Source: Spirodela intermedia (taxonomy: Eukaryota > Streptophyta > Magnoliopsida > Alismatales > Araceae). From it: 64,000 nucleotides of DNA. How positions within the stretch are numbered: position 1 is the first letter of the stretch; each line of letters starts with the position of its first letter. The stretch covers positions 3,904,501 to 3,968,500 of the forward strand of contig LR746281.1 of the NCBI GenBank assembly GCA_902729315.2, written 5' to 3'. Made by a program: the position numbers and the translations under genes. The notes under the pieces are model-generated. The model was not told where the DNA came from, made no database searches, and was given only the letters and a program-made list of their open reading frames with translations. Below, piece after piece: positions 962 to 54,943 of this stretch.

Positions 962-1782
962 TGACATAACTCAGTCATTGTATATTAAATTTATAAAACT
1001 AGAAAATATAAATTTTTGGATATTTAAAAGTATTTCTGAATAAATATATCAATTATAATTCAATAAAACTTCCAAAAATAGCAATTTTTCAAATCAATCA
1101 TAGAGATGTAATATAATATCTGGTAATTATTCAGAATTTTTCTCAATGAATATAATTTTCTATGAATTTTATACTAGGAAATAAAAAGGAAATATATTTA
1201 AAATTCATAAAAAAGAAAAATAAGGGTGCAGATGTTAGGATGACATCAACACTTGACAAACGTGAATCAACGAGAAATAAAGTTCTGCCTAGTGATTCTT
1301 ACGTAAGTGATTACAAATGGTTTAATTGATCAAATTAAGATCTATAAATACTAGAAGAATCGTAATAGAACAAAGTATATTTTGGTAAATTAAAATCACA
1401 AAAACTCTCACTAAATGAAACGTAAAGTAAGTCAAAAGCAGGAAAAAAGAGTTCTAGCATCGCGACAGTAATATGTCAGTGATGCACTAGAATCTTGAGT
1501 GTTTGAGAGGATCGATGCGTAGTGTCCACAGCCTCGAAGGCTCTCTTTGGACAAAGACGACGTGGGCAATCTTTTGATCTTCTCGCAAAGTCTAGAGATT
1601 AATGAAATGGGTCATCGAGTCATCTCTAGCGGCTGTCACCAGATGGAGTAGAAAAACGATAGCTTTATAGCTCTTCGACGGCTGTCACCCAACGGAGAGG
1701 AGCTGGATGGAGGTGGGGCACATGTCAGGGAGCTTCATCCTCAAGTTTGCGCAGCAAGAGGAGGCTCTTCATCGCATCTGGT
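962..1782 (-). repeat. Truncated LTR of element A (3' half of the LTR, reverse orientation)
   Basis: Begins TGACATAACTCAGTC, the reverse complement of the LTR 3' end, and follows the LTR backwards through the GC-rich middle part. It stops abruptly at about 1782, where the text switches to the forward strand of the same LTR (TTTTTATCTGATTATCGCG). The LTR 5' half is therefore missing from this copy. Confidence 0.88.
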
Positions 1783-2874
1783 ATTTTTATCTGATTATCG
1801 CGACTTTCCTGCAGATCGCCGGTGAAGGATTAAGCAACAAGAATCGCTAGATCATTGGCGAAAATCTCGTCAACGCGATTCGCGGAGCATTGCTACTAAA
1901 ATTGCTGAATGATTCGCGATAAAAGGATCGCGAATCCATCGAGTAAATCATCTTCGATTGATCGACGAACAAGCCGTCGTCGGGAAGAGGACGATCCGCT
2001 GGGAGACTAGTCACCACCTCCTGAGAGTGCACCAGATGCGATGAAGAGCCTCCTCTTGCTGTGCGGACCTGAGGATGAAGCTCCCTAACATGCGCCCCAC
2101 CTCCATCTAGCTCCTCTCCGTTGGGTGACGGCCGCCGAAGAGCCGCAAAGTCGCCGTTTTTCCGCTCCACCGGGTGACAGCCACCGGAGACGATTCGACG
2201 ACCCACTTTATTGATCTCTAGACTTCGCGAGAAGATCTAGAGATTGCCCACGTCGTCTTTGTCCAAGGAGAGCCTTCGAGGCCGTGGACACTGCACGACG
2301 ATCCTCCCGAATGCTCAGGATTTCAGTGCATCGCCGACGCATCATCGTCGCAACGCCGGAACTCTATTTTTCCTACTTTCAATTTAATTTACGCTTCATT
2401 TAGTGATACTTTGTGTGATTTTAATTCACCAAACTATACTTCGTTCAATTACGATTCTTCTGGCTTTTACGGATCTTAATTTGATTAATTAAGTCGTCTG
2501 TAATCGCTTACATAAGAATCGCCGGGCGGAACTTTGTTTCCGCCTGATTCGTGTTCACCGGGCGCTGACGTCATCCTGACACCCGCACCCTTATTTCCTT
2601 TTTTTTTGTGAATTTTAAATATATTTCCTTTTTATTTCTTAGTATAAAATTCGTAAGAAAATCGTATCCATTGAGAAAAATTCTGAATAATTACCATATA
2701 TTATATTACATCCTTGTAATCAACCTGAAAAGTTACCGATATTTTTGGAATTTTTATTGAATTATAATTGATATATTTATTTAGAAATACTTCTAAATAT
2801 CTGAAAATTTGCATTTTCTAGTTTTATAAATTTTATATTTGCGTGATTTAATATACAACGACTGAGTCACATCA
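1783..2874 (+). repeat. Partial 5' LTR of element B (first ~0.5 kb missing)
   Basis: Matches the 3' two thirds of the family LTR, from TTTTTATCTGATTATCGCG to the terminal CA at 2874, and is followed directly by the primer site. The promoter-proximal part with the TATA box is absent, so this copy could not start its own transcript from this LTR. Confidence 0.85.
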
Positions 2875-2879
2875 AATTT

Positions 2880-2897
2880 TGGCGCCATTGCCAGGGA
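2880..2897 (+). other. Primer binding site of element B (tRNA-Asp type)
   Basis: TGGCGCCATTGCCAGGGA lies six bases after the LTR end. It equals the complement of the 3' end of plant tRNA-Asp apart from two changes (the unmutated form TGGCGCCGTTGCCGGGGA is present in element D). A tRNA-Asp primer is typical of plant Athila and Tat elements. Confidence 0.85.
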
Positions 2898-3077
2898 TGT
2901 ATTGCATACTATTTAGTATTTTTCTGTTTTTCTCTTAGAGTACACAAAAAAAAAAACTTTACTCTTGTTTTATTTTCTTTTTGCCGATTTTTATTAGAAA
3001 AAGGGAACGAAAAGAAGCACGGCAAGGACTGGAGCATCCTGAAGGAGGGTAGCAGTTACTAACTTTTTCCCTCGAAT

Positions 3078-5387
3078 TTGTTGATTTTTATGCATGGTAG
3101 AAGATCTTTGCATCCAAGACTAGAAAATCCTTTCATTATTTCATTCAAAAATAAAAATCCGAAAGAAAAATTAATTTTGATGGATCTTGAAGGAAGTACA
3201 AGTCAAACTGAGAACAATCCTATGGCCATGAAAAATCATTATATCCCTGATTCATTTCAAAGAGCATCTAATATTAGAGTCCCATTAGCACCCACTGTTA
3301 AATTCGAAATAAATCCAGAAATTTTTCAAATGCTCCCTAATTTTCATGGATTGCTTTTAGAGGAACCTCATCAGCACTTAGAAAAATTTCATATGGTCTG
3401 TGATTTAGTTAATCTCCCTCAAGTTACACCGGAAATTATTAAGATGAAATTATTCCCTCATACACTTAGGGACAAAGCTAGTCATTGGCTATCCACATTA
3501 GATAGAGAATTAACTAGCTGGAAAGATATAGAACAGGCCTTTCTTCGAAAATTTTATCCCTTAGGAAAAACTCAAAATATGAGAAAACATATATGGAGTT
3601 TTTCTCAAAGACCAGGAGAAACTTTGCATGAGACATGGGAAAAATTCAAAGATTTACTTAGAAAGTGTCCTCATCATGCTATACCCAAGTGGCAGCTCAA
3701 TAGAATTTTTTATGATGGATTATTAGAACAACATAGAAATATGGTTGATTCTATATGTGGAGGAGCTTTTATGGAGAAAACTCCTAATGAGATTTACAGT
3801 CTTTATGAGAATTTAAGTGAAAATTCTAGAGATCAAGCCTCTTTTGAATTATATGACAAGGAAATGAAGAGAGAAATTTATGAATTGCATCATGATGATA
3901 ATTCTAAACTTAGAAATGAGGTTAATCAGATTAATCAAAGATTAGAAAAACTTGATTTACTTATTGACAATATTAGAAAGCCTCTTAACCCTCAATTTAA
4001 TTCAAATATTACATGTCCTACGTATGGTGAAAATGATCATTTCGAATTTCAATATCATCCTAGGCAAGAACAAGTGCAAGTACCTCACGATTTTAGTAAA
4101 AATTGGGAATATTTTTCTAATTCTTATAATCCTAATTGGGGGAATAATTTTTCGTGGAGAAACCCAAATAATATTCAAAATCCAGAAGCACTTAGACCCA
4201 ATTCAAACTCTGAATTTTGTCCAAAACAAGAAAATAGATTTCAGAAAAATCAGCCCTCTCAAACTCAACCTGATGCTATGGAAATGATGCAGCAAATGAG
4301 CCAAATGATGCAACAAACTATGAATCAAATGATGCAACAAACTATGAATCAGATGATGCTTCATCAGAAACAAATTATAGAGGCTCTTGAGAATAAGAGA
4401 GAAGAGGGACAGCTACCTAGTCAGCCCATAGAAAATTCAGAAAACTGTCCAACAGTAAGATTTCAGCAAGAAGAGTCTAGCTGGATAAATTTAAAAAAAA
4501 ACCAACGAAATGAAAATGTTAGGACAGTGAATATATTGAGTGAGAATATTTTACCTGATCCTTATTTTCAATTATTAAAAGAAATTGATGATCCATTAGA
4601 AGTAAATGAGAATATTAAGGCCAAAAATGTAGTAGCAGAAAATTTGAATAAAATCATTTATTGCTCACAATTGATGAATGAATATAGTGAGGATGATGAG
4701 GAGAAAGAACCCTTAGATGAAGAAACAGCAACTGATCATAGAAAAATCAACCAAATTTTAGTAGAAGGGAGTAAGGACAGAAATGAAGAAAAATATATTT
4801 CAGGTGAGGAAAAATCAATTGATTTGGGAGATGTAGGAGATGAAATTAATGAATCTAATCATAATTTTGCAGCCATGGATGTTGATTGTGAGGATGATGA
4901 TATATATCATATACCAAAATTAAAAGATAGCTCTTGGGAAGATGAAGAATTTGATGAGTTGAGAAACAAAAAGCTAGAAAAAGAATTGATTCAACTAATG
5001 GGAACAAGCGAAAATAATAGATATGAATATAGAGATAATTTTGGAGGAGAAAATTTGAATTTTACTGAATTCATTAGATCTGTGATTAAAGAAGACAATC
5101 CTTCTATCCTTCAAAACCCACAGCACATTAGAATTATTTCTAAGCTTGAAATATTTCACTCCTCGCAAATTGAACAAATATGTATGGAAGATAAAATGGA
5201 GCAGGGGAAGATTATGCAAATAAAAGAAGACATTAAGAAATGGGTGAGTGGAAGAATTAGAGATACCAATTTAGATGAAAAAAATTTAGATTGGGCAAGA
5301 GCTAATCTGAAAATTATATGGCCTGATCACATTTTATGGTTTATTAATAGAAAGTATTTATTAATGAATGAGAGCCTAACAAAATAA
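3078..5387 (+). CDS. gag: Gag polyprotein with unknown acidic C-terminal extension (pol-less element B)
   Basis: A 769-codon open frame. Residues about 60-250 form the retrotransposon Gag capsid region typical of Athila-like elements (SHWLSTLDRELTSW, FYPLGKTQNMRKHIWSFSQ, LRKCPHHAIP). A Met/Gln-rich stretch follows at about 400-435 (repeats of MMQQTMNQ). From about residue 505 onward there is no similarity to the protease frame of element C. Instead there is a very acidic, Lys-rich segment (EYSEDDEEKEPLDEE) and then a region rich in Trp, Ile and Arg (LDWARANLKIIWPDHILWFI). No zinc knuckle and no DTG protease motif are visible. The likely true start is the second Met, at 3090. The frame ends at a TAA where elements D and E have CAA, so the ancestral protein was longer, to about 5588. 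Capsid assembly is the expected role of the Gag part; the extension has no recognised function. Confidence 0.8.
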   Translation: MLIFMHGRRSLHPRLENPFIISFKNKNPKEKLILMDLEGSTSQTENNPMAMKNHYIPDSFQRASNIRVPLAPTVKFEINPEIFQMLPNFHGLLLEEPHQHLEKFHMVCDLVNLPQVTPEIIKMKLFPHTLRDKASHWLSTLDRELTSWKDIEQAFLRKFYPLGKTQNMRKHIWSFSQRPGETLHETWEKFKDLLRKCPHHAIPKWQLNRIFYDGLLEQHRNMVDSICGGAFMEKTPNEIYSLYENLSENSRDQASFELYDKEMKREIYELHHDDNSKLRNEVNQINQRLEKLDLLIDNIRKPLNPQFNSNITCPTYGENDHFEFQYHPRQEQVQVPHDFSKNWEYFSNSYNPNWGNNFSWRNPNNIQNPEALRPNSNSEFCPKQENRFQKNQPSQTQPDAMEMMQQMSQMMQQTMNQMMQQTMNQMMLHQKQIIEALENKREEGQLPSQPIENSENCPTVRFQQEESSWINLKKNQRNENVRTVNILSENILPDPYFQLLKEIDDPLEVNENIKAKNVVAENLNKIIYCSQLMNEYSEDDEEKEPLDEETATDHRKINQILVEGSKDRNEEKYISGEEKSIDLGDVGDEINESNHNFAAMDVDCEDDDIYHIPKLKDSSWEDEEFDELRNKKLEKELIQLMGTSENNRYEYRDNFGGENLNFTEFIRSVIKEDNPSILQNPQHIRIISKLEIFHSSQIEQICMEDKMEQGKIMQIKEDIKKWVSGRIRDTNLDEKNLDWARANLKIIWPDHILWFINRKYLLMNESLTK

Positions 5388-5588
5388 GATAGAAATAAGG
5401 AAAGATTCTTTTCAAAATGGAAATATTATTTTTGGGAAAAAATTGTTAATTTCCATTTTGTTTTGGCTGAAAGTATGTCAAGGTATATATATGAAGTATA
5501 TGAATTTATGCTAAATCTGAAAAAGAATATCATGAAACTTACCTTGGGATACAAATATATTTTGATGGCCATAGATTATCTTATTTGA
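5388..5588 (+). pseudogene. Read-through remainder of the Gag extension, cut off by a nonsense change in element B
   Basis: After the TAA at 5385-5387 the same frame stays open for 66 codons to a TGA at 5586-5588. It matches the C-terminal ends still joined in D (to 37779) and E (from 52470). The segment is rich in aromatic residues (FFSKWKYYFWE). In D and E the first codon is CAA, so a C-to-T change made the stop in B. Confidence 0.7.
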
Positions 5589-5628
5589 TATAAGAGCTGT
5601 CCAGCTGGAGACATTAAATTCAGCGCTG

Positions 5629-6812: not shown

Positions 6813-7174
6813 AAAAAAAAAAAAAAGAAGGAAGAAATATAGTGCAAATTTCAAAAATCAAGTCATAGAAAAAGGGAAATGTAAGATCAATATTATTCTT
6901 GGATGAGTATTGATAATTGGAACATCTTGTAAATACATCTATGAGTGAAGAAGTGATAAAGATGTGAATAGAAGAAGTGAAGTCTAGATTGTTATTCCAA
7001 GGAGTGTTTAAACATTTAAGTGCTTGGCATCATTCTTAAATACTTGATATAAGAATCCAAAGTGTTTAACGATGCATCATTTCTAATTATATTTTTTTTT
7101 CTGTATTGAAATATGATGTTTGAGATTTGTAAAATTTTATTTTTGTAATTCCATTGCTAAGGGACTAGCAATGA

Positions 7175-7190
7175 TTTAAGTTGGGGGGTA
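7175..7190 (+). other. Polypurine tract of element B
   Basis: TTTAAGTTGGGGGGTA directly precedes the TG that opens the 3' LTR. This is the expected plus-strand primer for reverse transcription. Equivalent tracts are at 39386-39401 (D) and 50895-50910 (E, reverse). Confidence 0.8.
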
Positions 7191-7622
7191 TGATAAGTCT
7201 TTATTATCATGAGTTAATAATTAGTAAATAATATAGTTTTAGCCTTAACTCATGATAAAGAGGCTTATATTTGTGTTAAAGAATGATTTGTGGTTTTTAA
7301 TTGATTAACGTGAATTTTTGGGTAATTATGTGATTTTATACGATTTTTACAGTCTTACTTTTGAGATAAATGAAGAACAAATAAAAATAAAAATATTCCA
7401 AAAATGAGGGAACCCACTGGCCAGCCGGGCCCGAAAGCGGGTCAGAAGCGCAGTCGGGGGGGGGAGTAAGCCGCGAGCAGGGGCTCGAGCGGCTTGGCTT
7501 GGGGACTAACAGGGCATGCACGTTCGCCGCTCCCCTTCCTCGTCACCGGTGGCCAGCCGGCTGTGCGGCAAGGAGTGGTCGTACACGCGAGAGAAGTGAC
7601 TTTGCTCACAAACCTAACATTA

Positions 7623-7631
7623 CTATATATT
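7623..7631 (+). promoter_or_regulatory. Probable TATA box of the LTR promoter
   Basis: CTATATATT is kept in almost every LTR copy of the family (for example 39828-39836 in D and the solo LTRs) and lies about 430 bp into the LTR. Transcription would start about 30 bp further on. Inferred from sequence only. Confidence 0.55.
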
Positions 7632-7688
7632 CGCCCGAAAACTCGGCGTACAACCGATGTGGGACTAAACCCCGGGGCGACCGGCGCG

Positions 7689-7699
7689 GGTTCGAATCC
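7689..7699 (+). promoter_or_regulatory. tRNA-like B box inside the LTR
   Basis: GGTTCGAATCC fits the Pol III B-box consensus exactly. It sits in a context resembling a tRNA T-arm and 3' acceptor strand (GCGGG TTCGAAT CCTCC, then GAGAGTCA), with a T5 run at 7722-7726. Nearly all LTR copies keep it. I see no convincing A box or 5' tRNA half upstream, so activity is unproven. Confidence 0.4.
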
Positions 7700-8146
7700 T
7701 CCGAGAGTCAAAATTCATATATTTTTATCTGATTATCGCGACTTTCCTGCAGATCGCCGGTGAAGGATTAAGCAACAAGAATCGCTAGATCATTGGCGAA
7801 AATCTCATCAACGCGATTCGCGGAGCATTGCTACTAAAATTGCTGAATGATTCGCGATAAAAGGATCGCGAATCCATCGAGTAAATCATCTTCGATTGAT
7901 CGACGAACAAGTCGTCGTCGGGAAGAGGACGATCCGCCGGGAGACCAGTCGCCACCTCCTGAGAGTGTACCAGATGCGATGAATCCTCTTGCTGTGCGGA
8001 CCTGAGGATGAAGCTCCCTAACACGCGCCCCACCTCCATCCAGCTCCTCTCCGTTGGGTGACGGCCGCCGGAGAGCCGCAAAGTCGCCGTTTTTCCGCTC
8101 CGCCGGGTGACAGCCGCCGGAGATGATTCGACAACCCACTTCATTG

Positions 8147-8177
8147 ATCTCTAGACTTCGCGAGAAGATCTAGAGAT
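8147..8177 (+). other. Conserved LTR stem-loop
   Basis: ATCTCTAGA-CTTC, loop GCGA, GAAG-A-TCTAGAGAT: thirteen base pairs with one bulged A. The outer nine pairs are kept in most LTR copies even where the inner part has mutated (D 3' LTR, solo LTRs). Being downstream of the TATA box, it should be in the RNA. Confidence 0.55.
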
Positions 8178-8807
8178 TGCCCACGTCGTCTTTGTCCAAA
8201 GAGAGCCTTCGAGGCCGTGGACACTGCATGACGATCCTCCCGAACGCTCAGGATTTCAGTGCATCGCCGACACATTGCCGTCGCAACGCCAGAACTCTAT
8301 TTTTCCTACTTTCAATTTAATTTACGCTTCATTTAGTGATACTTTGTTTGATTTTAATTCACCAAACTATACTTCGTTCAATTACGATTCTTCCAAATTT
8401 TACAGATCTTAATTTGATTAATTAAGTCGTCTGTAATCGCTTACGTAAGAATCGCCGGGCGGAACTTTGTTTCCGCCTGATTCGTGTTCACCGGGCGCTG
8501 ACGTCATCCTAACACCCGCACCCTTATTTCCTTTTTTTCATGAATTTTAAATATATTTCCTTTTTATTTCTTAGTATAAAATTCTTAAGAAAATTATATC
8601 CATTGAGGAAAAATTTTGAATAATTACTAGATATTATATCACATCCCTGTGATTGACTTGGAAAATTACCGCTATTTTTGGAATTTTTATTGAATTATAA
8701 TTGATATATTTATTTAGAAATACTTCTAAATATCCAAAAATTCATATTTTCTAGTTTTATAAATTTTATATTTGTGTGATTTAATATAGAACGACTGAGT
8801 CACGTCA

Positions 8808-9712: not shown

Positions 9713-10870
9713 TTACTCTTGAAATTTTTTTAATAATAAAATTTCTTTTTCTGCAAGGCGTTCATGTTCTATGTAATGTTTAAGCCGCTGTCCATTTACC
9801 TTAAAGTTATGATCACTTTTAGGATCTTTAATCATTATAGCCCCATGATCATATGTCTCTTCCACCACATAAGGCACTTTCCATTTTGATTTTAATTTTC
9901 TTGAGAATAATTTCAGCCTAGAATCATATAACCACACTTTTTGTCCAACATCAAATTTTTTTTCTGCTAATGTATTTATCATGGAAAGTTTTAGTTTTTT
10001 CTTTATATATTCTATGATTTTCATAAGCTTCATTCCTCAACTCCTCTAGTTCATGTAGCTGAAAAATTCTATGCCCACCAGCTGATTTCTCATCCATACA
10101 TAAATTTTTTATAGCCCATAATGCTTTATGCTCTATTTCCACAAGAAGATGACATGGCTTTCCAAAAATGAGACGAAATGGGGACATACCTATGGGATTT
10201 TTGTAAGCTGTTCTATAAGCCCATAATGCATCTTGTAATTTCGTGGGCCAATCTTTCCTATCTGGTCTAACTATTTTTCTCAAAATTCTCTAAATTTCCC
10301 TATTTGCTACTTCAGCTTGCCCATTTATTTGGGGATGATATGGAGTGGCTACTCTATGGTGTACTCCATTCTTTTTCAACAGTTCCCTGAAATGTTTATT
10401 TGTAAAATGTGTTCCTCCATCACTAATAATCACTCTAGGACATCCAAATCTCGAAAAAATATTTTCCTACACAAATTTCATCACGATTATATGATCATTA
10501 GTTCTAGTAGGAATAGCTTCTACCCACTTCGACACATAATCAACAGCATGCAAAATATATTCATATTTTTCAGCTGATGGGAAGAGACCCATGAAATCTA
10601 TTCCCCATACATCAAAAATTTTGATTACTCACATGTTACTCATGGGCATTTCATCTTTTTTACTCATGTTACTTATAGATTGGCATGAAATACATGTTCT
10701 ACTAAATTCTATAGAATCTCTAATAATTGTAGGCCAATAAAAACCGCACTGAAAAAATTTTGCAGCTATTTTTCGTCCAAAGAAATGTCCTCCACAGTTA
10801 GATGAATGGCACATGTTAATAATGATATGATATTCTTCTTCAAGAACACATCTCTTTAAAATTTGATCAT
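9713..10870 (-). pseudogene. Integrase of element C, decayed
   Basis: Read on the minus strand. The zinc-binding part is at about 10814-10629 (CHSSNCGGHF ... CISCQ). The catalytic core shows all three acidic residues: Asp in [10 protein letters not shown] (about 10617-10571), Asp in ISDGGTHF (about 10430) and Glu in NGQAEVANR (about 10330-10300). The C-terminal part ([19 protein letters not shown], then VWLYDSRLKLF) runs to 9713. At least two in-frame stops interrupt the core and a frameshift lies near 10000. It would insert element DNA into the chromosome; this copy cannot. Confidence 0.85.
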
Positions 10871-10952
10871 TGTCGAAGTAATATAAATCAAGATCATGTC
10901 AAAAATAATTTCTAATCTTAGAAAAGAAATGATATTTTCTATTCTTATCCCA

Positions 10953-11758
10953 CTATTTTGGAGTTTTTCCAGAAACCAGAAAATTAACAATATGTGCATA
11001 CCATGGTGATGGTTGATGTTGAGCTGCCATCAATTGTTCATCTGGAAATGCGTCTTGTAAAGGTGCTGCCTTTATTCCTGTATCACTTAATCTAGAAAGA
11101 TGGTCAGCAACAACATTCTCGAAACCTTTTTTATCTTTTATTTCTAAGTCAAATTCGTGCAACAATAAAATTCATCTTAATAAATGTGGCTTTGCATCTT
11201 TCTTATTTAATAGATATTTTAATGCTGCATGATCAGTATAAATAATAATTTTAGCTCCCAAATATATGATCTAAAACTTTCTAATAAAAATACTACAGCT
11301 AACAACTCTTTTTCAGTCGTGGTATAATTTAATTGAGCATCGGATATAGTTTTACTAGCATATGAAATTACTATGGGTTTTGACTCTTTTATTTGTCCTA
11401 GAATGGCCCCCACTGCATAATTCGATGCATCACACATTATTTCAAAGGGAAGGGACCAATCAGGAGTTTGTAAAAGGGGTACCTCAGTAAGTAATCTTTT
11501 TATTTCAAAAAAAGACTCAAAACATTTCTCATCAAAATTAAAAGGCACATCTTTAGATAATAGCATGGTGAGAGGTTTAGAAATTTTTGAAAAATCTTGA
11601 ATAAATTTTCTGTAATAACCTGCATGACCTAAGAAAGATCTAATCTGTTTTACTGAATTCAGAGGTTTCATTTTAGATATAATATCAATTTTTGCTCTAT
11701 CCACCTCTAAACCCTTTTCACTCACAATATGACCCAACACAACTCCCTCTTTAACCAT
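10953..11758 (-). pseudogene. RT thumb/connection and RNase H of element C, decayed
   Basis: The minus-strand frame from 11758 to 11219 covers the end of RT (IRSFLGHAGYYRKFIQDFS) and RNase H (FEIMCDASNYAVGAILGQ, TTTEKELLAVVFLLESFRSY). A second frame at 11165-10953 continues RNase H (LEIKDKKGFENVVADHLSRL). A frameshift or stop lies between them near 11200. The matches are standard for plant Ty3/gypsy elements. RNase H removes the RNA strand during reverse transcription. Confidence 0.88.
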
Positions 11759-11759
11759 A

Positions 11760-12680
11760 AAATGTGATTTCTCCTAACTCAAAACTAATTTTTTCTCTAT
11801 GCATTTCTCAAGTACATGCTGTAAATGATTTAAGCATTCATCAAATGATTCACCAAAAACAGAAAAATTGTCCATAAAAATTTCCATGTATTTTCAAATC
11901 ATATTAGAAAAAATAGACAGCCTACATCTTTGAAATGTGGCTGGAGCATTACACAAACCAAAAGGCATGCGTTTAAAAGCAAAAGTACCAAATGGACAAG
12001 TGAAAGTTATTTTTTCTTGATCTAAAGGGTTTATATAAATTTTATTATAACCAAAATATCCATCTAGAAAACAAAAAAGTTTTTTCCAGCTAATTTTTCT
12101 AGAATTTGATCAGTAAATGATAGGGAAAAATGATCTTTTCTAGTAATTGAATTTAATTTTCTATAATCAATGCAAACTCTCCAACTAGTAGTTAGTCTTG
12201 TTTGTATTTCATCCCCATTTTTGTTTTTTATAACCGTGATCCTTGATTTTTTGGCACTACTTGTGTAGGACTAACTCATTTGTTATCTGAAATAGGATAA
12301 ATAATATCAACAACCAGACACTTTAAAATTTCTTTTTTTATTATTTCCATCATGTTAGGATTTAATCTTCATTGTGGTTCCTTGCTAGTTCTAGCCCCCT
12401 CCTCTAAATATATACTATGCATACATACACTCATATCAATGCCCCTTAGATCATCCATTTTCCAGCCCATAACCTTCTTATTTTTTCGAAGTACATCTAA
12501 TAATTCTTCTTCTTGTTCATCACTCAAATCAGCTGCAATAATAACAGGAAATGAATTATTTTCCTCCAAAAACATATATTTTAAACTAGAGGGAAGAGGT
12601 TTCAACTCTAAATTCAAATGATCTTCCTCTTTCTTTTCTTCTAAATTTATATTCTCTATTTCTTCTAATTCTTCTAGCAC
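11760..12680 (-). pseudogene. Reverse transcriptase of element C, decayed, catalytic Asp changed
   Basis: The region from 12680 to 12369 is the conserved pre-RT segment of Athila-like Pol (LKPLPSSLKYMFLEENNSFP, then a block ending EEGARTSKEPQ). The RT palm and fingers follow with several stops: PFGTFAFKRMPFGLCNAPAT is clear at about 12005-11940. The active-site box reads FMDNF at 11862-11880 where the family has an Asp pair; the second Asp codon has become AAT (11867-11869). This change would abolish polymerisation even without the stops. Confidence 0.85.
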
Positions 12681-12724
12681 ACAGTCATCAATAACATCTG
12701 GATCATCAAAATCATCTAGAAGAT

Positions 12725-13603
12725 CTATGGTATGACAATCATATACTTGGGATTTCTTAAGATCATTTGATACCTCAAAATTTTAATTTTTACTAATTGA
12801 TCTCCACATGAAATTTTCACAATACCTGTGGAAAAATCAATATTCATCTTTGTTGTATGCAAAAATGGTCTCCCTAGGATGATTGGTGTATCATAAAACT
12901 GTCCATTAAAATCCATTTCCAGCACTACAAAATCAGCTGAAAATTTACACCCTTTAACTGTCAATATCATATTTTCTAAAATACCTTTAGGATGTTTTAT
13001 GGATCTATCAGCAAATTTTAAGGTAATAGTAGAAGGTTTAAGATCAGAAATATTAAATTTATCACAAATACTTGTAGGTAATAAATTAATACTAGCACCG
13101 GTGTCAAGTAATGCATTCTGAAAAATGAATCCACCAATATCACACGAAATTAAAGGGGAACCTATATCTCTCAATTTAAATGGTAATTGATTTAATAATA
13201 ATGCACTAGCATGCATAGATAATTTTTCTACTCTATGTGCCCTTTTTGGTGTACACATTTCTTTCAAAACTCTAGCATATTTAAGAATATGTTCAATGGC
13301 AGTAAGTAAAGGAAGACTAATTTGCACAACTTGTAAAATTTTCTTTATTTCTTCATTGTGTTCCTTTTTCTTTCTTTGTCTAGGCTCTAGAGCTTTAGGA
13401 AATGGAATGGTTGTCCTCTCTTTCAAAATTTCTTTGGTAGAATCTATAAAATCCTCTTCTACTCCTATTTGATTTTGTTTTGGGTTGTCCACATTTTTTT
13501 TTTCTTCCAATGTTTGGGAATAAGGATCAAGTAAGATCTTACCACTCCTTAATACATTCACTATCCTAATATTTTTATTTCGTGGGTTTTTTCCTAGATT
13601 CAT
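12725..13603 (-). pseudogene. Gag-Pol linker and aspartic protease of element C
   Basis: A 292-codon minus-strand frame. The first ~30 residues (from NLGKNPRNKNIRIVN) correspond to the Gag part just before the unique extension of element B; similarity between the two types ends soon after DPYSQTLEE. The protease is at about residues 145-275, with the active-site motif ALLDTGASINLLP (DNA about 13083-13125) and the flap/closing segment IILGRPFL. The frame is open, but it is separated from Gag by stops and has no intact downstream RT, so I count it as part of a dead element. Confidence 0.82.
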
Positions 13604-20753: not shown

Positions 20754-21965
<1,212 letters not shown>

Positions 21966-33911: not shown

Positions 33912-35070
33912 TGATAAGTCTTCATTATCATGAGTTAATAATTAGTAAATAATATAGTTTTAGCCTTAACTCATGATAAATAGACTTATATTTGTGTTAA
34001 AGAATGATTTTTGGTTTTCAATTGATTAACGTGAATTTTTGGGTAATTATGTGATTTTATACGATTTTTACAGTCTTACTTTTGAGATAAATGAAGAACA
34101 AGAAATAAAAATAAAAATATTGCAAAAATGGGGGGACCCGCCGGCCAGCCGGGCCCGCAAGTAGAAGCGCAGTCGGCGACTAAGCCGCGAGCAGAAGCTC
34201 GAGCGGCTTGGCTTGGGGACCGATAGGGCACGCGTACGCCACTCCCCTTCCACATCACTGGTGGCCAGCCAGCTGTGGGGCAAGGAGTGGTCATACACGC
34301 GAGAGAAGGGACTTTGCTCACAAACCTAACATTATTATATATTCGCCCAAAAAATCGGCGATGTGGGACTAAACCCCCGTCACACCTTCCTCAGAAGAGG
34401 CCGCCAGAGACGATTCGACGACCCACTTCATTGATCTCTAGACTTCGCGAGAAGATCTAGAGATTGCCCATGTCGTCTTTGTCCAAAGAGAGCCTTCGAG
34501 GCCGTGGACACTGCATGACGATCCTCCCGAACGCTCAAGATTCCGATGCATCGCCGTCGCGACGCCGGAACTCTGTTTTCCTGCTTTCAATTTAATTTAC
34601 GCTTCATTTAGTGATACTTTGTGTGATTTTAATTTACAAAACTATACTTCGTTCAATTACGATTCTTCCGGCTTTTACAGATCTTAATTTGATTAATTAA
34701 GTCGTCTGTAATTGCTTACGTAAGAATCACCGGGCGGAACTCTATTTCCGCCTGATTCGCGTTCGCCGGGCGCTGACGTCATCCTGACGCCCGCACCCTT
34801 ATTTCCTTTTTTTCGTGAATTTTAAATATATTTCCTAGTATAAAATTCGTAAGAAAATTTTATTCATTGAGAAAAATTCTAAATAATTACCAGATATTAT
34901 ATTACATCCCTGTGATCGACCTGGAAAATTACCACTATTTTTGGAATTTTTATTGAATTATAATTGATATATTTATTTTGAAATACTTCTAAATATCCGA
35001 AAATTCGTATTTTCTAGTTTTATAAATTTTATATTTGCGTGATTTAACATACAATGACTGAGTCACGTCA
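33912..35070 (+). repeat. 5' LTR of element D, 1159 bp, with an internal deletion
   Basis: Same ends as the 3' LTR but about 460 bp shorter. Near 34400 the sequence jumps from TTCCTCAGAAGAGG to CCGCCAGAGACGATTCG, removing the B box and the following GC-rich part. The TATA box region (about 34337) remains. The deletion must have happened after insertion, since both LTRs start identical. Confidence 0.88.
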
Positions 35071-35273: not shown

Positions 35274-37779
35274 TTGATTTTTATGTATGGTAGAAGATCC
35301 TTTCATCCAAGGCTAGAAAATCCTTTCATTATTTCATTCAAAAATAAAAATCCGAAAGAAAAATTAATTTTGATGGATCCTGAAGGAAGTACAAGTCAAA
35401 CTGAGAACAATCCTATGGCCATGAAAAATCATTATATCCCTGATTCATTTCAAAGAGCATCTAATATTAGAGTCCCATTAGCACCCACTGTTAAATTCGA
35501 AATAAATCCAGGAATTTTTCAAATGCTCCCTAATTTTCATGGATTGCCTTTAGAGGAACCTCATCAGCACTTAGAAAAATTTTATATGGTCTGTGATTTA
35601 CTTAATCTCCCTCAAGTTACACCGGAAATTATTAAGATGAAATTATTCCCTCATACACTTAGGGACAAAGCTAGTCATTGGCTATCCACATTAGATAGAG
35701 AATTAACTAGCTGGAAAGATATAGAACAGGCCTTTCTTTGAAAATTTTATCCCTTAGGTAAAAGTCAAAATATGAGAAAACATATATGGAGTTTTTCTCA
35801 AAGACCAGGAGAAACTTTGCATGAGACATGGGAAAAATTCAAGGATTTACTTAGAAAGTGTCCTCATCATGCTATACCCAAGTGGCAGCTCAATAGAATT
35901 TTTTATGATGGATTATTAGAACAACATAGAAATATGGTTGATTCTATATGTGGAGGAGCTTTTATGGAGAAAACTCTTGATGAGATTTATAATCTTTATG
36001 AGAATTTAAGTGAAAATTCTAGAGATCAAGCCTCTTTTGAATTATATGACAAGGAAATGAAGAGAGAAATTTATGAATTGCATCATGATGATGATTTAAA
36101 CTTAGAAATGAGGTTAATCAGATTAATCAAAGATTAGAAAAACTTGATTTACTTATTGACAATATTAGAAAGCCTCTTAACCCTCAATTTAATTCAAATA
36201 TTACATGTCCTAGGTATGGTGAAAATGATCATTTCGAATTTCAATATCATCCTAGGCAAGAACAAGTGCAAGTACCTCACGATTTTAGTAAAAATTGGGA
36301 ATATTTTTCTAATTCTTATAATCCTAATTGGGGGAATAATTTTTCGTGGAGAAACCCAAATAATATTCAAAATCCAGAAGCACTTAGACCCAATTCAAAC
36401 TCTGAATTTTGTCCAAAACAAGAAAATAGATTTCAGAAAAATCAGCCCTCTCAAACCCAACCTGATGCTATGGAAATGATGCAGCAAATGAGCCAAATGA
36501 TGCAACAAATTATGAATCAAATGATGCAACAAACTATGAATCAGATGATGCTTCATCAGAAACAAATTATAGAGGCTCTTGAGAATAAGAGAGAAGAGGG
36601 ACAGCTACCTAGTCAGCCCATAGAAAATTCAGAAAACTGTCCAACAGTAAGATTTCAGCAAGAAGAGTCTAGCTGGATAAATTTAGAAAAAAACCCACGA
36701 AATGAAAATGTTAGGACAGTGAGTATATTGAGTGAGAATATTTTACCTAATCCTTATTTTCAATTATTAGAAGAAATTGATGATCCATTAGAAGTAAATG
36801 AGAATATTAAGGCCAAAAATGTAGTAGCAGAAAATTTGAATAAAATCATTTATTGCTCACAATTGATGAATGAATATAGTGAGGATGATGAGGAGAAAGA
36901 ACCCTTAGATGAAGAAACAGCAACTGATCATAGAAAAATCATCCAAATTTTAGTAGAAGGGAGTAAGGACAGAAATGAAGAAAAATATATTTCAGGTGAG
37001 GAAAAATCAATTGATTTGGGAGATGTAGGAGACGAAATTAATGAATCTAATCATAATTTTGCAGCCATGGATGTTGATTGTGAGGATGATGATGTATATC
37101 ATATACCAAAATTAAAAGATAGCTCTTGGGAAGATGAAGAATTTGATGAGTTGAGAAATGAAAAGCTAGAAAAAGAATTGATTCAACTAATGGGAACAAG
37201 AGAAATAATAGATATGAATATAGAGATAATTTTGGAGGAGAAAATTTGAATTTTACTGAATTCATTAGATCTGAGATTAAAGAAGACAATCCTTCCATCC
37301 TTCAAAACCCACAGCCCATTAGAATTATTTCTAAGCTTGAAATATTTCACTCCTCGCAAATTGAACAAATATGTAGGGAAGATAAAATGAAGCAGGGGAA
37401 GATTATGCAGATAAAAGAAGACATTAAGAAATGGGTGAGTGGAAGAATTAGAAATACCAATTTAGATGAAAAAATTTTAGATTGGGCAAGAGCTAATCTG
37501 AAAATTATATGGCCTGATCACATTTTATGGTTTATTAATAGAAAGTATTTATTAATGAATGAGAGCCTAACAAAACAAGATAGAAATAAGGAAAGATTCT
37601 TTTCAAAATGGAAATATTATTTTTGGGAAAAAATTGTTAATTTCCATTTTTTTTTGGCTGAAAGTATGTCAAGGTATATATATGAAGTATATGAATTTAT
37701 GCTAAATCTGAAAAAGAATATCATGAAACTTACCTTGGGATACAAATATAATTTGATGGCCATAGATCATCTTATATGA
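35274..37779 (+). pseudogene. gag: Gag with unknown C-terminal extension, element D, broken by a stop and frameshifts
   Basis: Nearly the same protein as in element B. Breaks: CGA to TGA at 35739-35741 inside the capsid region (B has CGA); a 1-bp deletion near 36095 in the segment after YELHHDD; and another 1-bp deletion near 37200. The extension then runs to the original stop at 37777-37779, including the FFSKWKYYFWE segment that B has lost. The four parts can be aligned to B without gaps elsewhere, so this was one protein of about 835 residues. Confidence 0.85.
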
Positions 37780-39401: not shown

Positions 39402-41041
39402 TGATAAGTCTTCATTATCATGAGTTAATAATTAGTAAATAATATAGTTTTAGCCTTAACTCATAATAAATAGACTTATATTTGTGTTAAAGAATGATTT
39501 GTGGTTTTCAATTGATTAACGTGAATTTTTGGGTAATTATGTGATTTTATACGATTTTTACAGTCTTACTTTTGAGATAATTGAAGAACAAATAAAAATA
39601 AAAATATTGCAAAAATGGGGAAACCGCTGGCAAGCCGGGTCCGCAGGCGGGTCGGAAGCGCAGTCGGGGAGTAAGCCGCGAGCAGGGGCTCGAGCAGCTT
39701 GGCTTGGGGACCAACAGGGCACGCGCATTAGCCACTCCCCTTTCACGTCACCGGTGGCCAGCCGGCTGTGGGGCAAGGAGTGGTCGTACACGCGAGAGAA
39801 GTGACTTTGCTCAAAAATTTAACATTACTATATATTTGCCCGAAAACTCGGCGTACAACCGATGTGGGACTAAACCCCCGCACACCTTCCTCAGAAGAGG
39901 CGGGGGCGACCGGCGCGGGTTCGAATCCTCCCAGAGTCAAAATTCATATATTTTTATCTAATTATCGCGACTTTCCTGCAGATCGTCGGTGAAGGATTAA
40001 GCAACGAGAATCACTGGATCATCAGCGAAAATCTCGTCAACGCGATTCGCGGAGCATTGCTACTAAAATTGCTAAACGATTCGCAATAAAAGGATCGCGA
40101 ATCCATCGAGTAAATCATCTCCGATTGATCGACGAACAAGCCGTCATCAGGAAGAGGACGATCCACCGGGAGACCAGTCGCCACCTCCTAAGAGCATACC
40201 AGATGCGATGAAGAGCCTCCTCTTGCTGCGCGGACCTGAGGATGAAGCTCCCTAACACGCGCCCCACCTCCATCCAGCTCCTCTCCGTCGGGTGACAGCC
40301 GCCGGAGAGCCGCAAAGTCGCCGTTTTTCCGCTCCGTCGGGTGACAGCCGCTAGAGACGATTCGACGACCCACTTCATTGATCTCTAGATATCACGAGAA
40401 GATCTAGAGATTGCCCACGTCGTCTTTGTCCAAGGAGAGCCTTCGAGGCCGTGGACACTGCACGACGATCCTCCCGAACGCTCAGGATTCCGGTGCATCG
40501 CCGACGCATCACCGTCGCGACGCCGGAACTCTGTTTTCCTGCTTTCAATTTAATTTACGCTTTATTTAGTGATACTTTGTGTGATTTTAATTTACCAAAC
40601 TATACTTTGTTAAATTACGATTCTTCCGGCTTTTACAGATCTTAATTTGATTAATTAAGTCGTCTGTAATCGCTTACGTAAGAATCGCCGGGCGGAACTC
40701 TGTTTCCGCCTGATTTGCGTTCGCCGGGCGCTGATGTCATCCTGACGCCCGCACCCTTATTTCCTTTTTTTTTGTGAATTTTAAATATATTTCCTTTTTA
40801 TTTCCTAGTATAAAATTCGTAAGAAAATCGTATTCATTGAGAAAAATTCTGAATAATTACCAGATACTATATTACATCCCTGTGATCGACTTGGAAAATT
40901 ACCGCTATTTTTGGAATTTTTATTGAATTATAATTGATATATTTATTTTGAAATACTTTTTAAATATCCGAAAATTCGTATTTTCTAGTTTTATAAATTT
41001 TATATTTGCGTGATTTAACATACAACGACTGAGTCACGTCA
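39402..41041 (+). repeat. 3' LTR of element D, 1640 bp
   Basis: Complete family LTR with TATA box at 39828-39836 and B box at 39918-39928. It also has a GC hairpin (CCCCCGC ... GCGGGGG, about 39875-39907) just upstream of the B box that is lost in B and reduced in other copies. The inner part of the stem-loop near 40380-40410 is mutated. Confidence 0.92.
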
Positions 41042-49279: not shown

Positions 49280-50894
49280 TGACGTGACTCAGTCGTTGTA
49301 TATTAAATCACGCAAATATAAAATTTATAAAACTAGAAAATACGAATTTTCAAATATTTAGAAGTATTTCTAAATAAATATATCAATTATAATTCAATAA
49401 AACTTCCAAAAATAGTAGTAATTTTCCAGGTCGATCATAGGGATGTAGTATAATACCTAGTAATTATTCAGAATTTTTCTCAATGAATATGATTTTCAAT
49501 GAATTTTATACTAAGAAATAAAAAGGGAAATATATTTAAAATTCACAAAAAATAAAAATAAGGGTGCGGACGTCAGGATGACATCAGCGCCTGACAAATG
49601 CAAATCGAGCGGAAATAGAGTTCCACTTGGTGATTCTTACGTAAGTGATTATAGATGATTTAATTGAATAAATTAAGATTTGTAAAAGTCAGAAGAATCG
49701 TAATAGAACAAAGTATATTTTGGTAAATTAAAACATAAAAATTATCACTAAATGAAGCGTAAAGTAAATTGAAAGTAGGAAAACAGAGTTCCGATGTCGC
49801 AATGGTGATGCGTCAGCGATGCACCGGAATCCTGAGCGTTCGGGAGGATCATTGTCCAATGTCCATGGCCTCAAAGGCTCTCCTTGGACAAAGACAATGT
49901 GGGCAATCTCTAGATCTTTTCGCAAAGTCTAGAGATCAATAAAGTGGGTCGTCAAATCGTCTTCGACGACTGTTACCCGGTGGAGCAGAAAAATGGTGAC
50001 TTTGCGGCTCTCTAGCGACTGTCACCTAATGGAGAGGAGGTAGATGAAGGTGGGGCGCGTGTCAGGGAGCTTCATCCTCAGGTCTGTGCAACAAGAGGAG
50101 GCTCTTCATCGCATCCGGTACGCTCTCAAGAGGTGGCGACTCATCTCCTAGCAGATCGTCCTCTTCCCGACGACGACTTTTTTGTCAATCAATTGGAGAT
50201 GATTTACTTGATGGATTCGCAATCCTTTTATTGCGAATTGTTCAACAATTTTAGTAGCAATGCTCTGCGAATTGCATTGACGAGATTTTTGCCAATGATC
50301 CAACAATTCTTGTTACATAATCTTTCACCAGCGATTTGTAGGAAAGTCATGATAATTAGATAAAAATATATGAATTTTGACTCTAGGAGGATTCGAACCC
50401 GCGCCGGTCGCCCGCTTGAGATGCGAGTTTAGTCCTACATCGGTTGTGCGCCGATTTTTTAGGCGAATATATAGTAATGTTAGCTTTGTAAGCTTCTCTT
50501 GCGTGTACAACCACTCCTTGTCCCACACCCGGTTGGCCACTGGTGACGTGGAAGGGGAGTGGCGCACACGTGCCCCTATATCGATCCAAGCTAAGCCGTT
50601 TGAGCCCTTGTTCGCGGCTACTTCCTGATTGAGCTTCCGACCCGCTTGCGGGCCCGACTGGCTAGCAGGTCCCCCCATTTTGTAATATTTTTATTTTTCT
50701 TTCTTGTTCTTCATTTATCTCAAAAGTAAAGACTATAAAAATCGTATAAAATCACATAATTACCCAAAAATTCACGTTAATCAACTGAAAATCACAAATC
50801 ATACTTTAACACAAATATGAGTCTATTTATCATGAGTTAAGGCTAAAACTATACTATTTACTAATAATTCACTCATGATAATGAAGACTTATCA
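49280..50894 (-). repeat. 3' LTR of element E, 1615 bp
   Basis: Reverse-oriented family LTR with intact B box (about 50388-50402) and TATA box (about 50468). Contains several C-to-T type differences from the 5' LTR. Confidence 0.9.
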
Positions 50895-52469: not shown

Positions 52470-54943
52470 TCATATAAGATGATCTATGGCCATCAAAATA
52501 TATTTGTATCCCAAGGTAAGTTTCATGATATTCTTTTTCAGATTTAGCATAAATTGATATACTTCATATATATACCTTGACATACTTTCAGCCAAAACAA
52601 AATGAAAATTAACAAAATTTTCCCAAAAATAATATTTCCATTTTGAAAAGAATCTTTCCTTATTTCTATCTTGTTTTGTAAGGCTCTCATTCATTAATAA
52701 ATGCTTTTTATTAATAGACCAAAAAATGTGATCAGGCCATATAATTTTTGAATTAGCTCTTACCTAATCTAAAATTTTTTCATCTAAATTGATATATCTA
52801 ATTCTTCCATTCATCCATTTCTTGATGTCTTCTTTTATCTGCATAATCCTCCCCTACTCCATTTTATCCTCCATACATATTTGTTCGATTTGTGAGGAGT
52901 GAAATATTTCAAGCTTAGAAATAATTCTAATGGGCTGTGGGTTTTGAAGGATGGAAGGATTGTCTTCTTTAATCTCAGATCTAATGAATTCAGTAAAATT
53001 CAAATTTTCTCTTCCAAAATTATCTCTATATTCATATTCATTATTTTCGTTTCTCCCCATTAGTTGAATCAACTCTTTTTCTAACTTTTCGTTTCTCAAC
53101 TCATTAAATTCGTCATCTTCCCAAGAGCTATCTTTTAATTTCGAGATATGATATACATCATCATCAACATTCATGGCTGTAAAATTATGATTAGATTTAT
53201 TAATTTTGTCTCCTACATCTCCCAAATCAACTGATTTTTCCTCACCTGAAATATGTTTTTCTTCATTTGTGTCCTTACTCCCTTCTACTAAAATTTGGAT
53301 GATTTTTCCATGATCAGCTGCTGTTTCTTCATCTAAGGGCTCTTTCTCCTCATCATCCTCACTATCTTCATTCATCAATTGTGAGCAATAAATGATTTTA
53401 TTCAAATTTTCTGCTACTATATTTTCAACCTTAATATTCTCATTTACTTCTAATGGCTCATTAATTTCTTCTAATAATTGGAAATAAGGATCAAGTAAAA
53501 TATTCTCACTCAATGTATTTACTGACCTAATATTTTCATTTCGTGGGTTTTTTTCTAAATTTATCCAACTAGACTCTTCTTGTTGAAATCTTATTGTTGG
53601 ATAGTTTCTTGAATTTTCTATGGGCTGACTAGGTAGCTGTCCCTCTTCTCTCTTATTCCCAAGAGCCTCTATAATTTGTTTCTGATACAACATCATTTGA
53701 TTCGTAGTTTGTTGCATCATTTGGCTCATTTGCTGCATCATTTCTCTAGTATCATGTTGGGTTTGAGAGGACTGATTTTTCTGAAATCTATGTTCCTATT
53801 TTGGACAAAATTCAAAATGTGAATTGGATCTAAGTGCTTCTGAATTTTGAATATTATTTGGGTTTCTCCACGGAAAATTATTCCCCCAATTAAGATTATA
53901 AGAATTAGAAAAATATTCTCTATTTTTACTAAAATCGTGGGGTACTTATACTTGTTCTTGCATAGGATGATATTGAAATTCGAAATGATCATTTTCACCA
54001 TACGTAGGACATGTACTATTTGAATTAAATTGAGGGTTAAGAGGCTTTCTAATATTGTCAATAAGTAAATCATTTTTTTCTAATCTTTGATTAATCTAAT
54101 TAACCTCATTTCTAAGTTTAAATCATCATCATGATGCAATTTATAAATTCCTCTCTTCTTATCCCTATCATATAATTCAAAAGAGTCTTGATCTCTAGAA
54201 TTTTCACTTAAATTCTCATAAAGACTGTAAATCTCATTAGGAATTTTCTCCATAAAAGCTCCTCCACATATAGAATCAACCATATTTCTATGTTGTTCTA
54301 ATAATCCATCATAAAAAATTCTATTGAGCTGCCACTTGGGTACAGCATGATGAGGACACTTTCTAAGTAAATCTTTAAATTTTTCCTATGTCTCATGCAA
54401 AGTTTCTCCTAGTCTTTGAGAAAAACTCTATATATGTTTTCTCATATTTTGAGTTTTTCCTAAGAGATAAAATTTTCAAAGAAAGGCCTGTTCTATATCT
54501 TTCTAGCTAGTTAATTCTCTATCTAATGTGGATAACCAATGTCTAGCTTTGTCCCTAAGTGTATGAGGGAATAATTTCATCTTAATAATTTCCGGTGTAA
54601 CTTGAGGGAGATTAACTAAATCACAGACCATATAAAATTTTTCTAAGTGCTGATGAGGTTCCTCTAAAGGCAATCCATGAAAATTAGGGAGCATTTGAAA
54701 AATTCCTAGATTTATTTCGAATTTAACAGTAGGTGCTAATGGGACTCTAATATTAGATGTTCTTTGAAATGAATCAGGGATATAATGATTTTTCATGGCC
54801 ACAGGATTATTCTCAGTTTGACCTGTACTTCCTTCAAGATCCATCAAAATTAATTTTTCTTTTGGATTTTTATTTTTGAATAAAATAATGAAAGGATTTT
54901 CTAGCCTTGGATGCAAGGATCTTCTACCATGCATAAAAATCAA
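52470..54943 (-). pseudogene. gag: Gag with unknown C-terminal extension, element E, broken
   Basis: Minus-strand pieces (54943-54503, 54283-54080, 54073-53738, 53741-52854, 52694-52470) follow the same protein as B and D. A Trp codon is now a stop near 54500 and another near 54425. The frame is shifted near 54118, at the same place and with the same bases as in element D. Further breaks lie near 53750, 52855 and 52765. The extension (from about 53450) keeps its acidic part and the C-terminal FFSKWKYYFWE part in frame over long stretches. Confidence 0.82.

What the first reader, a model, noticed from the sequence alone, without database searches (positions are those of the whole stretch)
4580..5588. 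Pol-less elements carry a ~1 kb open frame of unknown origin fused to Gag in place of pol
Comparing B, D and E with the pol-bearing C, homology holds through Gag to about LPDPYFQLLEE, stops, and resumes at GTCCAGCTGGAGACATTAAA (5600). Between these points C has protease-RT-RNase H-integrase, whereas B, D and E have about 330 codons of acidic then aromatic/basic sequence with no motif I recognise. The same segment is open in B and still largely readable in D (36750-37779) and E (53450-52470), so it spread as part of the element. Pol-less Gag elements (TR-GAG) are known; a conserved non-pol domain fused to Gag is not something I can match to a described family. It could be captured host sequence, a remodelled env-like or ORF of Athila, or a packaging or trans-recruitment domain.
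Basis: partly seen in the sequence, partly recalled or inferred. Interest (0 to 1): 0.8.

Follow-up and report, generated by a model that had tools for sequence, protein, structure and literature searches.

The report
Retrotransposon Gag carrying a pol fossil
More than a hundred jumping genes in a duckweed-like plant genome lack their copying enzymes and carry instead a 335-residue tail on their coat protein; the end of that tail looks like a worn-down remnant of the lost enzymes rather than a captured gene, and the rest is of unknown origin.

Summary
In B, D and E pol is replaced by a 335-codon frame fused to Gag (B 4581-5588); homology with pol-bearing C stops at 4584 and resumes at 5599. 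It is a high-copy family: 144 matches, 143 of 656 candidates scored, 16 with a frame of 840-852 aa and no stop in the match. In B, D and E themselves the frame is interrupted. Two parts of the interpretation change. First, the C-terminal third resembles pol: residues 262-286 match the RNase H-integrase linker and 321-334 the start of the integrase core, in pol order; none of 900 shuffles reached either score. So it is at least partly a collapsed pol remnant; residues ~27-221 stay unassigned. Second, Gag plus an unknown domain without pol is already described: wheat RLG_Quinta (PMC11302176). Gag-Pol-length open partners with similar LTRs and the same PBS and PPT exist, and 27 of 35 copies carry more partner-type than B-type bases in central gag but B-type next to the insert. 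Selection on the insert is weak, like Gag's. Best reading: a semi-autonomous element making Gag with a pol-remnant tail and borrowing its partner's enzymes.

The parts
1782..2879 (+). Element B, remnant of 5' LTR
   Evidence: 94.3% to 7720-8807
2880..2897 (+). Primer-binding site of B (two bases off the site of D and of the two autonomous elements read)
3180..4580 (+). Gag of B (PF03732 in open relative L013, E 2.9e-20)
4581..5588 (+). Insert of B in place of pol: 335-codon frame fused to Gag; TAA at 5385-5387 interrupts it in this copy
4596..4658 (+). Residues 6-26 of insert, possible RNase H C-terminal remnant (weak: 15 of 900 shuffles as good)
4659..5243 (+). Residues 27-221 of insert, acidic in its first part, origin unassigned
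   Evidence: no supported pol match in pol order
5253..5495 (+). Residues 225-305 of insert, resembles RNase H-integrase linker of pol (core profile match 262-286 = 5364-5438; the rest by pairwise alignment only)
5541..5582 (+). Residues 321-334 of insert, resembles start of the integrase core
7178..7189 (+). Polypurine tract of B
7191..8807 (+). 3' LTR of B
33912..35070 (+). Element D, 5' LTR (internally deleted)
36773..37779 (+). Insert of D (1-nt deletion near 37200 breaks the frame)
39402..41041 (+). 3' LTR of D; target-site duplication ACATT on both sides of D
55153..56768 (-). Element E, 5' LTR; target-site duplication ACTCT/ACTTT
52470..53468 (-). Insert of E (9-nt deletion, two TAG)
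49280..50894 (-). 3' LTR of E
9716..13603 (-). Element C, pol in broken frames (protease, RT, RNase H, integrase pieces): the pol-bearing relative
   Evidence: protease also (below the curated cut-offs)

Best explanation
B, D and E are members of a non-autonomous (semi-autonomous) Ty3/gypsy-type LTR retrotransposon family that makes Gag and leaves reverse transcription and integration to a Gag-Pol partner in the same genome. The 335-residue tail fused to Gag is, at least in its C-terminal third, what remains of pol after protease, RT and most of RNase H and integrase were lost: it descends from the RNase H-integrase linker and the first residues of the integrase core. The block has diverged so far that DNA similarity to pol is gone, while LTRs, the 5' and central gag and the 3' non-coding region stay close to the partner's, probably because packaged RNAs of the two recombine during reverse transcription. 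Shown here: the replacement, copy number, open Gag+tail frames, shared PBS/PPT and similar LTRs, open Gag-Pol-length frames in the partner, mosaic Gag, similarity of two tail segments to pol in pol order. Inferred: co-packaging and template switching as the cause of the mosaics, use of the partner's enzymes, translation as one Gag-tail protein, and that the tail is kept open because it is part of the Gag precursor.
For: Pol remnant: hhalign of 61 natural copies against 78 non-redundant plant pol proteins gave as its two best hits 262-286 to the linker (35.4) and 321-334 to the integrase core (33.4); 30 shuffles of the whole insert reached 26.6 at most, the reversed insert 25.2. Windows then chosen around these hits: 33.7 and 28.7, 0 of 900 shuffles each; reversed pol gives 18.7 and 14.9. 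The two lie in pol order. Smith-Waterman of residues 141-335 scores 76, 76 and 78 against pol fragments L075, L076, L077 (one related group) versus shuffle maxima 53-59 in 300; 61 against partner L074 (2 of 300 as good), 67 against L078 (1 of 300). Over 78 pols the mean is 51.6, shuffled sets 45.8 at most; 59 of 78 best alignments are centred on L074 residues 700-799. The replaced block is the pol coding part: homology resumes about 10 nt after the pol stop. Partner: open frames of 1778, 1778 and 1770 aa, the length of Gag-Pol, among 150 scored RT matches; C11 element LTRs 0.5% apart over 978 nt; PBS of both autonomous elements read equals D's; LTR of pol-less L020 1.8% from the partner's, with TSD GTGGG on both sides. 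Recombination: of 72 sites separating partner from B and D, L013 is partner-type at 28 of the 38 at gag 757-1271 and B-type at 31 of 31 from 1280 to the junction; 27 of 35 copies have more partner- than B-type sites in the middle, the older subfamily (L039-L042, E) does not. From gag position 1350 to the junction L013, L022, B, D, E and L040 are 76-88% like the partner where pol-bearing C is 92-94%.
Against: Residues 27-221, more than half of the insert, show no supported pol match, so the whole insert is not proven pol-derived. Residues 151-225 score no better than shuffles against the 78 pols (33.4 versus 32.8), and the protease match first seen (172-220, E 0.29) is not supported; window 211-280, which holds the first part of the linker alignment, is not significant either (11 of 40). 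The profile is shallow (Neff 1.35) and HH probabilities are low (9-40%); the claim rests on shuffles and order, and the 900-shuffle windows were picked after the hits were seen. With a whole-pol HMM L013 scores 8.6 bits, the best of 961 controls 8.3 and 7.1; older open copies score lower still (L039 5.5, L040 -5.2). On the 3' side there is no clear drop of identity toward the insert (92-100% in the first 50 nt for L013, B, D, E), so the picture of flanks refreshed up to the block rests on the gag side. The adjacent end of gag differs from the partner's by only 12-24%, so the tail either diverged much faster or is older than that stretch.
Confidence: 0.7

Rival explanations
1. The insert is a captured host gene fragment (transduction) that spread with Gag.
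For: No protein-family match and no DNA similarity to pol beyond short chance-like matches; [quoted passage not shown]
Against: Only one protein matches the insert, a Spirodela intermedia Gag-domain protein of the same element type; C-terminal third resembles pol in pol order. Limit: the search inside the genome is filled by family copies (one search scores 143 of 656), and one search scored 1879 candidates sharing words, so a diverged host gene could be missed.
Confidence: 0.1
2. Hybrid: pol remnant at the C-terminus, but segment 27-221 is a separate acquisition or a de novo expansion inside the deleted pol.
For: Pol matches at 262-334, and weakly at 6-26, flank an unmatched stretch.
Against: Fast divergence of an acidic linker would look the same; the protease-RT linker of the partner is also acidic (read by eye).
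Confidence: 0.35
3. The tail has no function; it is a tolerated relic, open in many copies only because the family is a young burst.
For: N:S of variants shared by 4 or more copies (96:34) is close to that of singletons (275:73), Fisher p 0.27, and 7 stop variants are shared by 4 or more copies; insert alone fixed versus singletons p 0.083.
Against: A tail diverged beyond DNA recognition from pol yet open over 335 codons is not expected without constraint (about 2e-15 by chance); subfamily-fixed changes 11:7 in the insert and 27:12 in gag against singletons give combined p 0.043 at the 0.8 threshold, one of four tried; omega about 0.5 between L013 and open L039 and L040.
Confidence: 0.25
4. 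Env-like ORF of an Athila-type element moved next to Gag.
For: Aromatic, basic C-terminus; lineage resembles Athila (recalled).
Against: Similarity is to the RNase H-integrase linker and integrase core, not to a post-integrase ORF; C itself goes from integrase straight to the shared 3' region.
Confidence: 0.03

Closest known systems
RLG_Quinta of Einkorn wheat (partner RLG_Cereba), PMC11302176 (abstract, section 5 and passages of section 6 seen)
   Same: Gag plus a domain of unknown function (DUF1) and no RT/INT; LTR ends, PBS and parts of LTR shared with an intact autonomous partner; sequence exchange by template switching proposed
   Different: Different element family and plant; the authors have no hint of DUF1's function and say it may have been acquired later; here the tail's end resembles pol. 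Whether DUF1 is also a pol remnant is untested
RLG_Sabrina / RLG_WHAM of wheat, PMC9744471 (passages seen)
   Same: Gag-coding, pol-less 'semi-autonomous' elements; some Sabrina variants carry unique coding segments
   Different: Hardly any sequence homology left to the partner RLG_Wilma; here LTR and gag pieces are mostly 85-99% identical to the partner
TR-GAG elements (named in PMC8704663, PMC10552921 and others, search listings only; the original paper is not held)
   Same: LTRs, PBS, PPT and gag without pol
   Different: TR-GAG is defined by Gag alone (recalled); here Gag carries a long tail
Intra-family recombination of ONSEN, PMC5668417 (abstract seen)
   Same: Pairwise recombination among family members during bursts
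   Different: There among Onsen members in Arabidopsis; here inferred from mosaics between Gag-Pol and pol-less copies

Membership tests
Non-autonomous Gag-only LTR retrotransposon (TR-GAG-like) | Two LTRs with TG..CA ends and target-site duplication | tested here: met
   D: TSD ACATT; E: ACTCT/ACTTT (4 of 5); L020: GTGGG both sides; B not testable, its 5' end is lost
Non-autonomous Gag-only LTR retrotransposon (TR-GAG-like) | PBS and PPT | tested here: met
   PBS pattern in B and D, PPT in B, D, E; E's decayed PBS not matched by the pattern
Non-autonomous Gag-only LTR retrotransposon (TR-GAG-like) | Gag domain, no functional pol | tested here: met
   PF03732 E 2.9e-20 is the only Pfam family of L013's 835-aa frame
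RLG_Quinta-type partner pair | Gag fused to non-pol domain; autonomous partner sharing LTR ends and PBS | tested here: met
   architecture only
RLG_Quinta-type partner pair | Homology of the extra domain to Quinta DUF1 | not testable with these tools
   no Quinta sequence at hand
RLG_Quinta-type partner pair | Co-expression of the two partners | not testable with these tools
   no transcript data
Athila lineage (Ty3/gypsy) | tRNA-Asp-type PBS (recalled) | tested here: inconclusive
   PBS TGGCGCCGTTGCCGGGGA read; the tRNA was not looked up
Athila lineage (Ty3/gypsy) | RT phylogeny | not tested
   no tree was built; the lineage name is recalled
Athila env-like ORF | ORF 3' of integrase, unrelated to pol | tested here: not met
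   the insert stands in place of pol and its end resembles pol
Captured host gene | Similarity to a host protein | tested here: not met
   none with E <= 0.1 among 1879 candidates (insert alone) or E <= 1 among 4709 (insert within the full protein), apart from one Gag protein; sensitivity limited to shared words

The most novel reading that the evidence does not exclude
The pol remnant has been turned into a working Gag tail: keeping an integrase-proximal contact surface of Gag-Pol but no enzyme, it lets the pol-less Gag recruit or bind the partner's Pol in trans, so that such elements evolve from deletion derivatives into specialised particle makers. If so, 'domains of unknown function' on other pol-less Gag elements, RLG_Quinta DUF1 included, may be pol fossils with the same role.
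Probability: 0.15. Interest if true: 0.65.

Novelty: new member of a known kind. Interest (0 to 1): 0.36.

Why it matters
It gives another lineage with the Gag-plus-unknown-domain design known from wheat, in a small plant genome, and offers a concrete origin for the unknown domain: eroded pol, overlooked because neither DNA nor family searches recognise it. That is testable on other pol-less Gag families whose extra domain is filed as unknown.

Tried and rejected
Protease remnant at residues 172-220: suggested by one tblastn hit (E 0.29), not supported by later tests. Weak matches of residues 123-137 to the integrase C-terminus (22.9 and 23.4; 1 and 0 of 40 shuffles as good in the two windows holding it) are out of pol order and in a Glu/Leu/Arg-rich stretch; not counted. 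A match of residues near 216-243 to integrase positions (19.1, 2 of 40) likewise. A drop of identity toward the insert on the 3' side was an artefact: the first bin held about 22 nt of pol end; recomputed from the true border it is gone. AlphaFold2 of the insert: mean pLDDT 38.5, so no fold search was made. PDB by sequence, Pfam and NCBIfam for the insert: nothing meaningful (a PARP_reg hit at E 1.3 to L022 is noise). Frequency-class test of selection: not significant. tRNA genes in the window by ARAGORN: none; Rfam over 7100-8900: five matches, all below gathering score. Host-gene relatives inside the genome could not be ruled out because the search fills up with family copies.

Full report
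What is there. Self-comparison of the window shows LTRs of about 1.6 kb, three pol-less elements (B, D forward; E reverse), one pol-bearing element (C, reverse) and three solo LTRs (27305-28930, 42634-44252, 46920-48542). B and C are alike through gag to 4584, then not until 5599. In B, D and E the gap holds a 335-codon frame that continues Gag.

How common. The window lies in G000, 136.5 Mb in 32 contigs. The insert as DNA gave 40 scored matches of 403 candidates, 96-100% identical; as protein 144 matches, 143 of 656 candidates scored, 74-100% identical. Sixteen of the 144 have no stop in the match and an open frame of 840-852 aa, the length of Gag and insert as one frame. The only outside protein is a Gag-domain protein of Spirodela intermedia with about 50 residues of the insert.

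What the insert is. Ordinary searches find nothing useful. At DNA level no pol similarity beyond short chance-like matches remains (best E 0.001 over 54 nt). At protein level residues 141-335 align to the stretch between RNase H and the integrase zinc finger in L075, L076 and L077 with scores 76, 76 and 78 against shuffle maxima of 53, 59 and 58 (300 shuffles each); these three are one related group, so they count as one test. Partner pol L074 gave 61 (2 of 300 shuffles as good), L078 67 (1 of 300). Three further fragments lacking this stretch gave 35-50. Against 78 non-redundant plant pols the mean score is 51.6 (range 32-83), 40 shuffled sets average 37.5 and at most 45.8, the reversed insert 36.8; 59 of 78 best alignments are centred on L074 residues 700-799. 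Profile-profile comparison gives two best segments in pol order: 262-286 to L074 765-787 (35.4) and 321-334 to L074 895-908 (33.4), the latter the start of the integrase core; 30 shuffles reach 26.6, the reversed insert 25.2. In windows chosen around them none of 900 shuffles reaches the score, and reversed pol gives much less. A third, residues 6-26 to the end of RNase H, is weak (15 of 900). A whole-pol HMM separates less well: 8.6 bits for L013, 10.8 for the best copy, -5.2 for the worst, with 8.3 and 7.1 for the best of 961 controls. Residues 27-221 have no supported match in pol order. The picture is a Gag-Pol frame that lost protease, RT and most of RNase H and integrase, kept end pieces, and drifted.

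Mosaic flanks. In six young copies (L013, L022, L012, L034, L020, L016) gag is 94-100% identical to partner copy AUTO_C2 in every 150-nt bin up to 1350 and 79-83% in the last bin; over all 15 copies tabulated the last bin is 79-84%, while other bins of the remaining copies run lower in places (53-93%). Pol-bearing C keeps 92-94% in the last ~150 nt where L013, L022, B, D, E and L040 have 76-88%. Of 72 sites separating the partner from B and D, 38 lie at 757-1271 and 31 from 1280 on: 27 of 35 copies have more partner- than B-type bases in the first stretch, all 35 are mainly B-type in the second; 15 of 35 meet a strict cut (at least 60% and at most 10% partner-type). The older subfamily (E, L039-L042) and L025, L037, L043 are mainly B-type in both. 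So the young majority took central gag from the partner lineage. On the 3' side identity is high up to the border (92-100% in the first 50 nt for L013, B, D, E); an earlier bin that suggested a drop there was an artefact. Such mosaics are what template switching between co-packaged RNAs leaves; the mechanism is inferred, with ONSEN (PMC5668417, abstract) and Quinta (PMC11302176, passages) as precedents.

The partner. The RT search lists open frames of 1778, 1778 and 1770 aa among 150 scored of 876 candidates. I read gag and pol of two of these in separate pieces (C11: L044, L069, L074, L070; C2: L071), not as one frame. The C11 copy's LTRs differ by 0.5% over 978 nt. PBS and PPT agree with those of the pol-less copies; B's PBS differs at two bases, and E's was not found by the pattern used. 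Pol-less L020 has LTRs 2.6% apart, a perfect target-site duplication and an LTR 1.8% from the partner's; the LTR ends of L013 and L022 could not be paired from the stretches fetched. LTR distances: B 5.1%, D 4.0%, E 12.3%, L039 element 5.9% (B, D and L039 over part of the LTR).

Selection. Neutral expectation for N/S from the singleton spectrum is 4.0 (insert) and 4.3 (gag). Singletons 275:73 (61 copies) and 243:63 (37 copies); variants in four or more copies 96:34 and 63:24; not significant. Changes fixed between young and older groups at 80%: 11:7 and 27:12; at 90, 70 and 60% the insert gives 6:4, 15:7 and 19:7, gag 6:1, 28:12 and 46:18; with only the five older copies that have gag, the insert gives 11:3 to 22:7. 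Against singletons the 80% counts give p 0.083, 0.15 and, combined, 0.043. Pairwise omega: 0.43-0.69 for the insert in 13 of 14 pairs, 1.19 for L013-L043; 0.45-0.72 for gag; several of these copies hold stops and the pairs are not independent. The insert is under weak constraint of the same order as gag. The stronger argument is indirect: a frame that has lost DNA similarity to pol but is still open.

How it works. Most likely the element is a Gag supplier that is copied and integrated by the partner's enzymes; the tail is the remnant of the Pol half of Gag-Pol. Whether the tail does anything is open. My estimate: pol origin of the C-terminal third 0.85, semi-autonomous life style 0.85, useful tail 0.3, trans-recruitment 0.15. 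On recheck I lowered the overall confidence from 0.72 to 0.70 because the 3'-side gradient fell away.

Known or new. The design equals RLG_Quinta's (Gag + DUF1, partner Cereba; section 5 read). The listings of searches showed no paper on this family in Spirodela or on a pol origin of such domains; the library is open-access only and the listings show the top rows, not every paper. New here: the family and the pol resemblance of part of the domain. That makes it a new member of a known kind with a useful twist.

Noticed in passing
window 1-1783 / 2031-3845: A further minus-strand element copy meets B head to head: the two form a large inverted repeat joined inside the LTRs near 1782, so B lacks part of its 5' LTR.
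   Followed up: no
window 8807-9703: The 3' LTR of B ends exactly where internal sequence of C begins (reverse strand); no 3' LTR of C is seen there. A rearranged or nested junction.
   Followed up: no
window 7689-7699, 28403-28413, 39918-39928, 43133-43143, 47431-47441, 50389-50399, 56263-56273: GGTTCGAATCC, a tRNA T-arm / Pol III B-box-like word (recalled), occurs in seven LTR copies against 0.02 expected by chance; no tRNA gene is predicted.
   Followed up: partly
window 20754-21356 (-): ORF resembling the C-terminal part of a plant 2-oxoglutarate/iron dioxygenase (recalled from reading the translation).
   Followed up: no
G000 C4:3729086-3737808 and C4:3801197-3809906: An RT match and an open 852-aa pol-less copy lie about 7.9 kb apart twice, which looks like a segmental duplication.
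   Followed up: no
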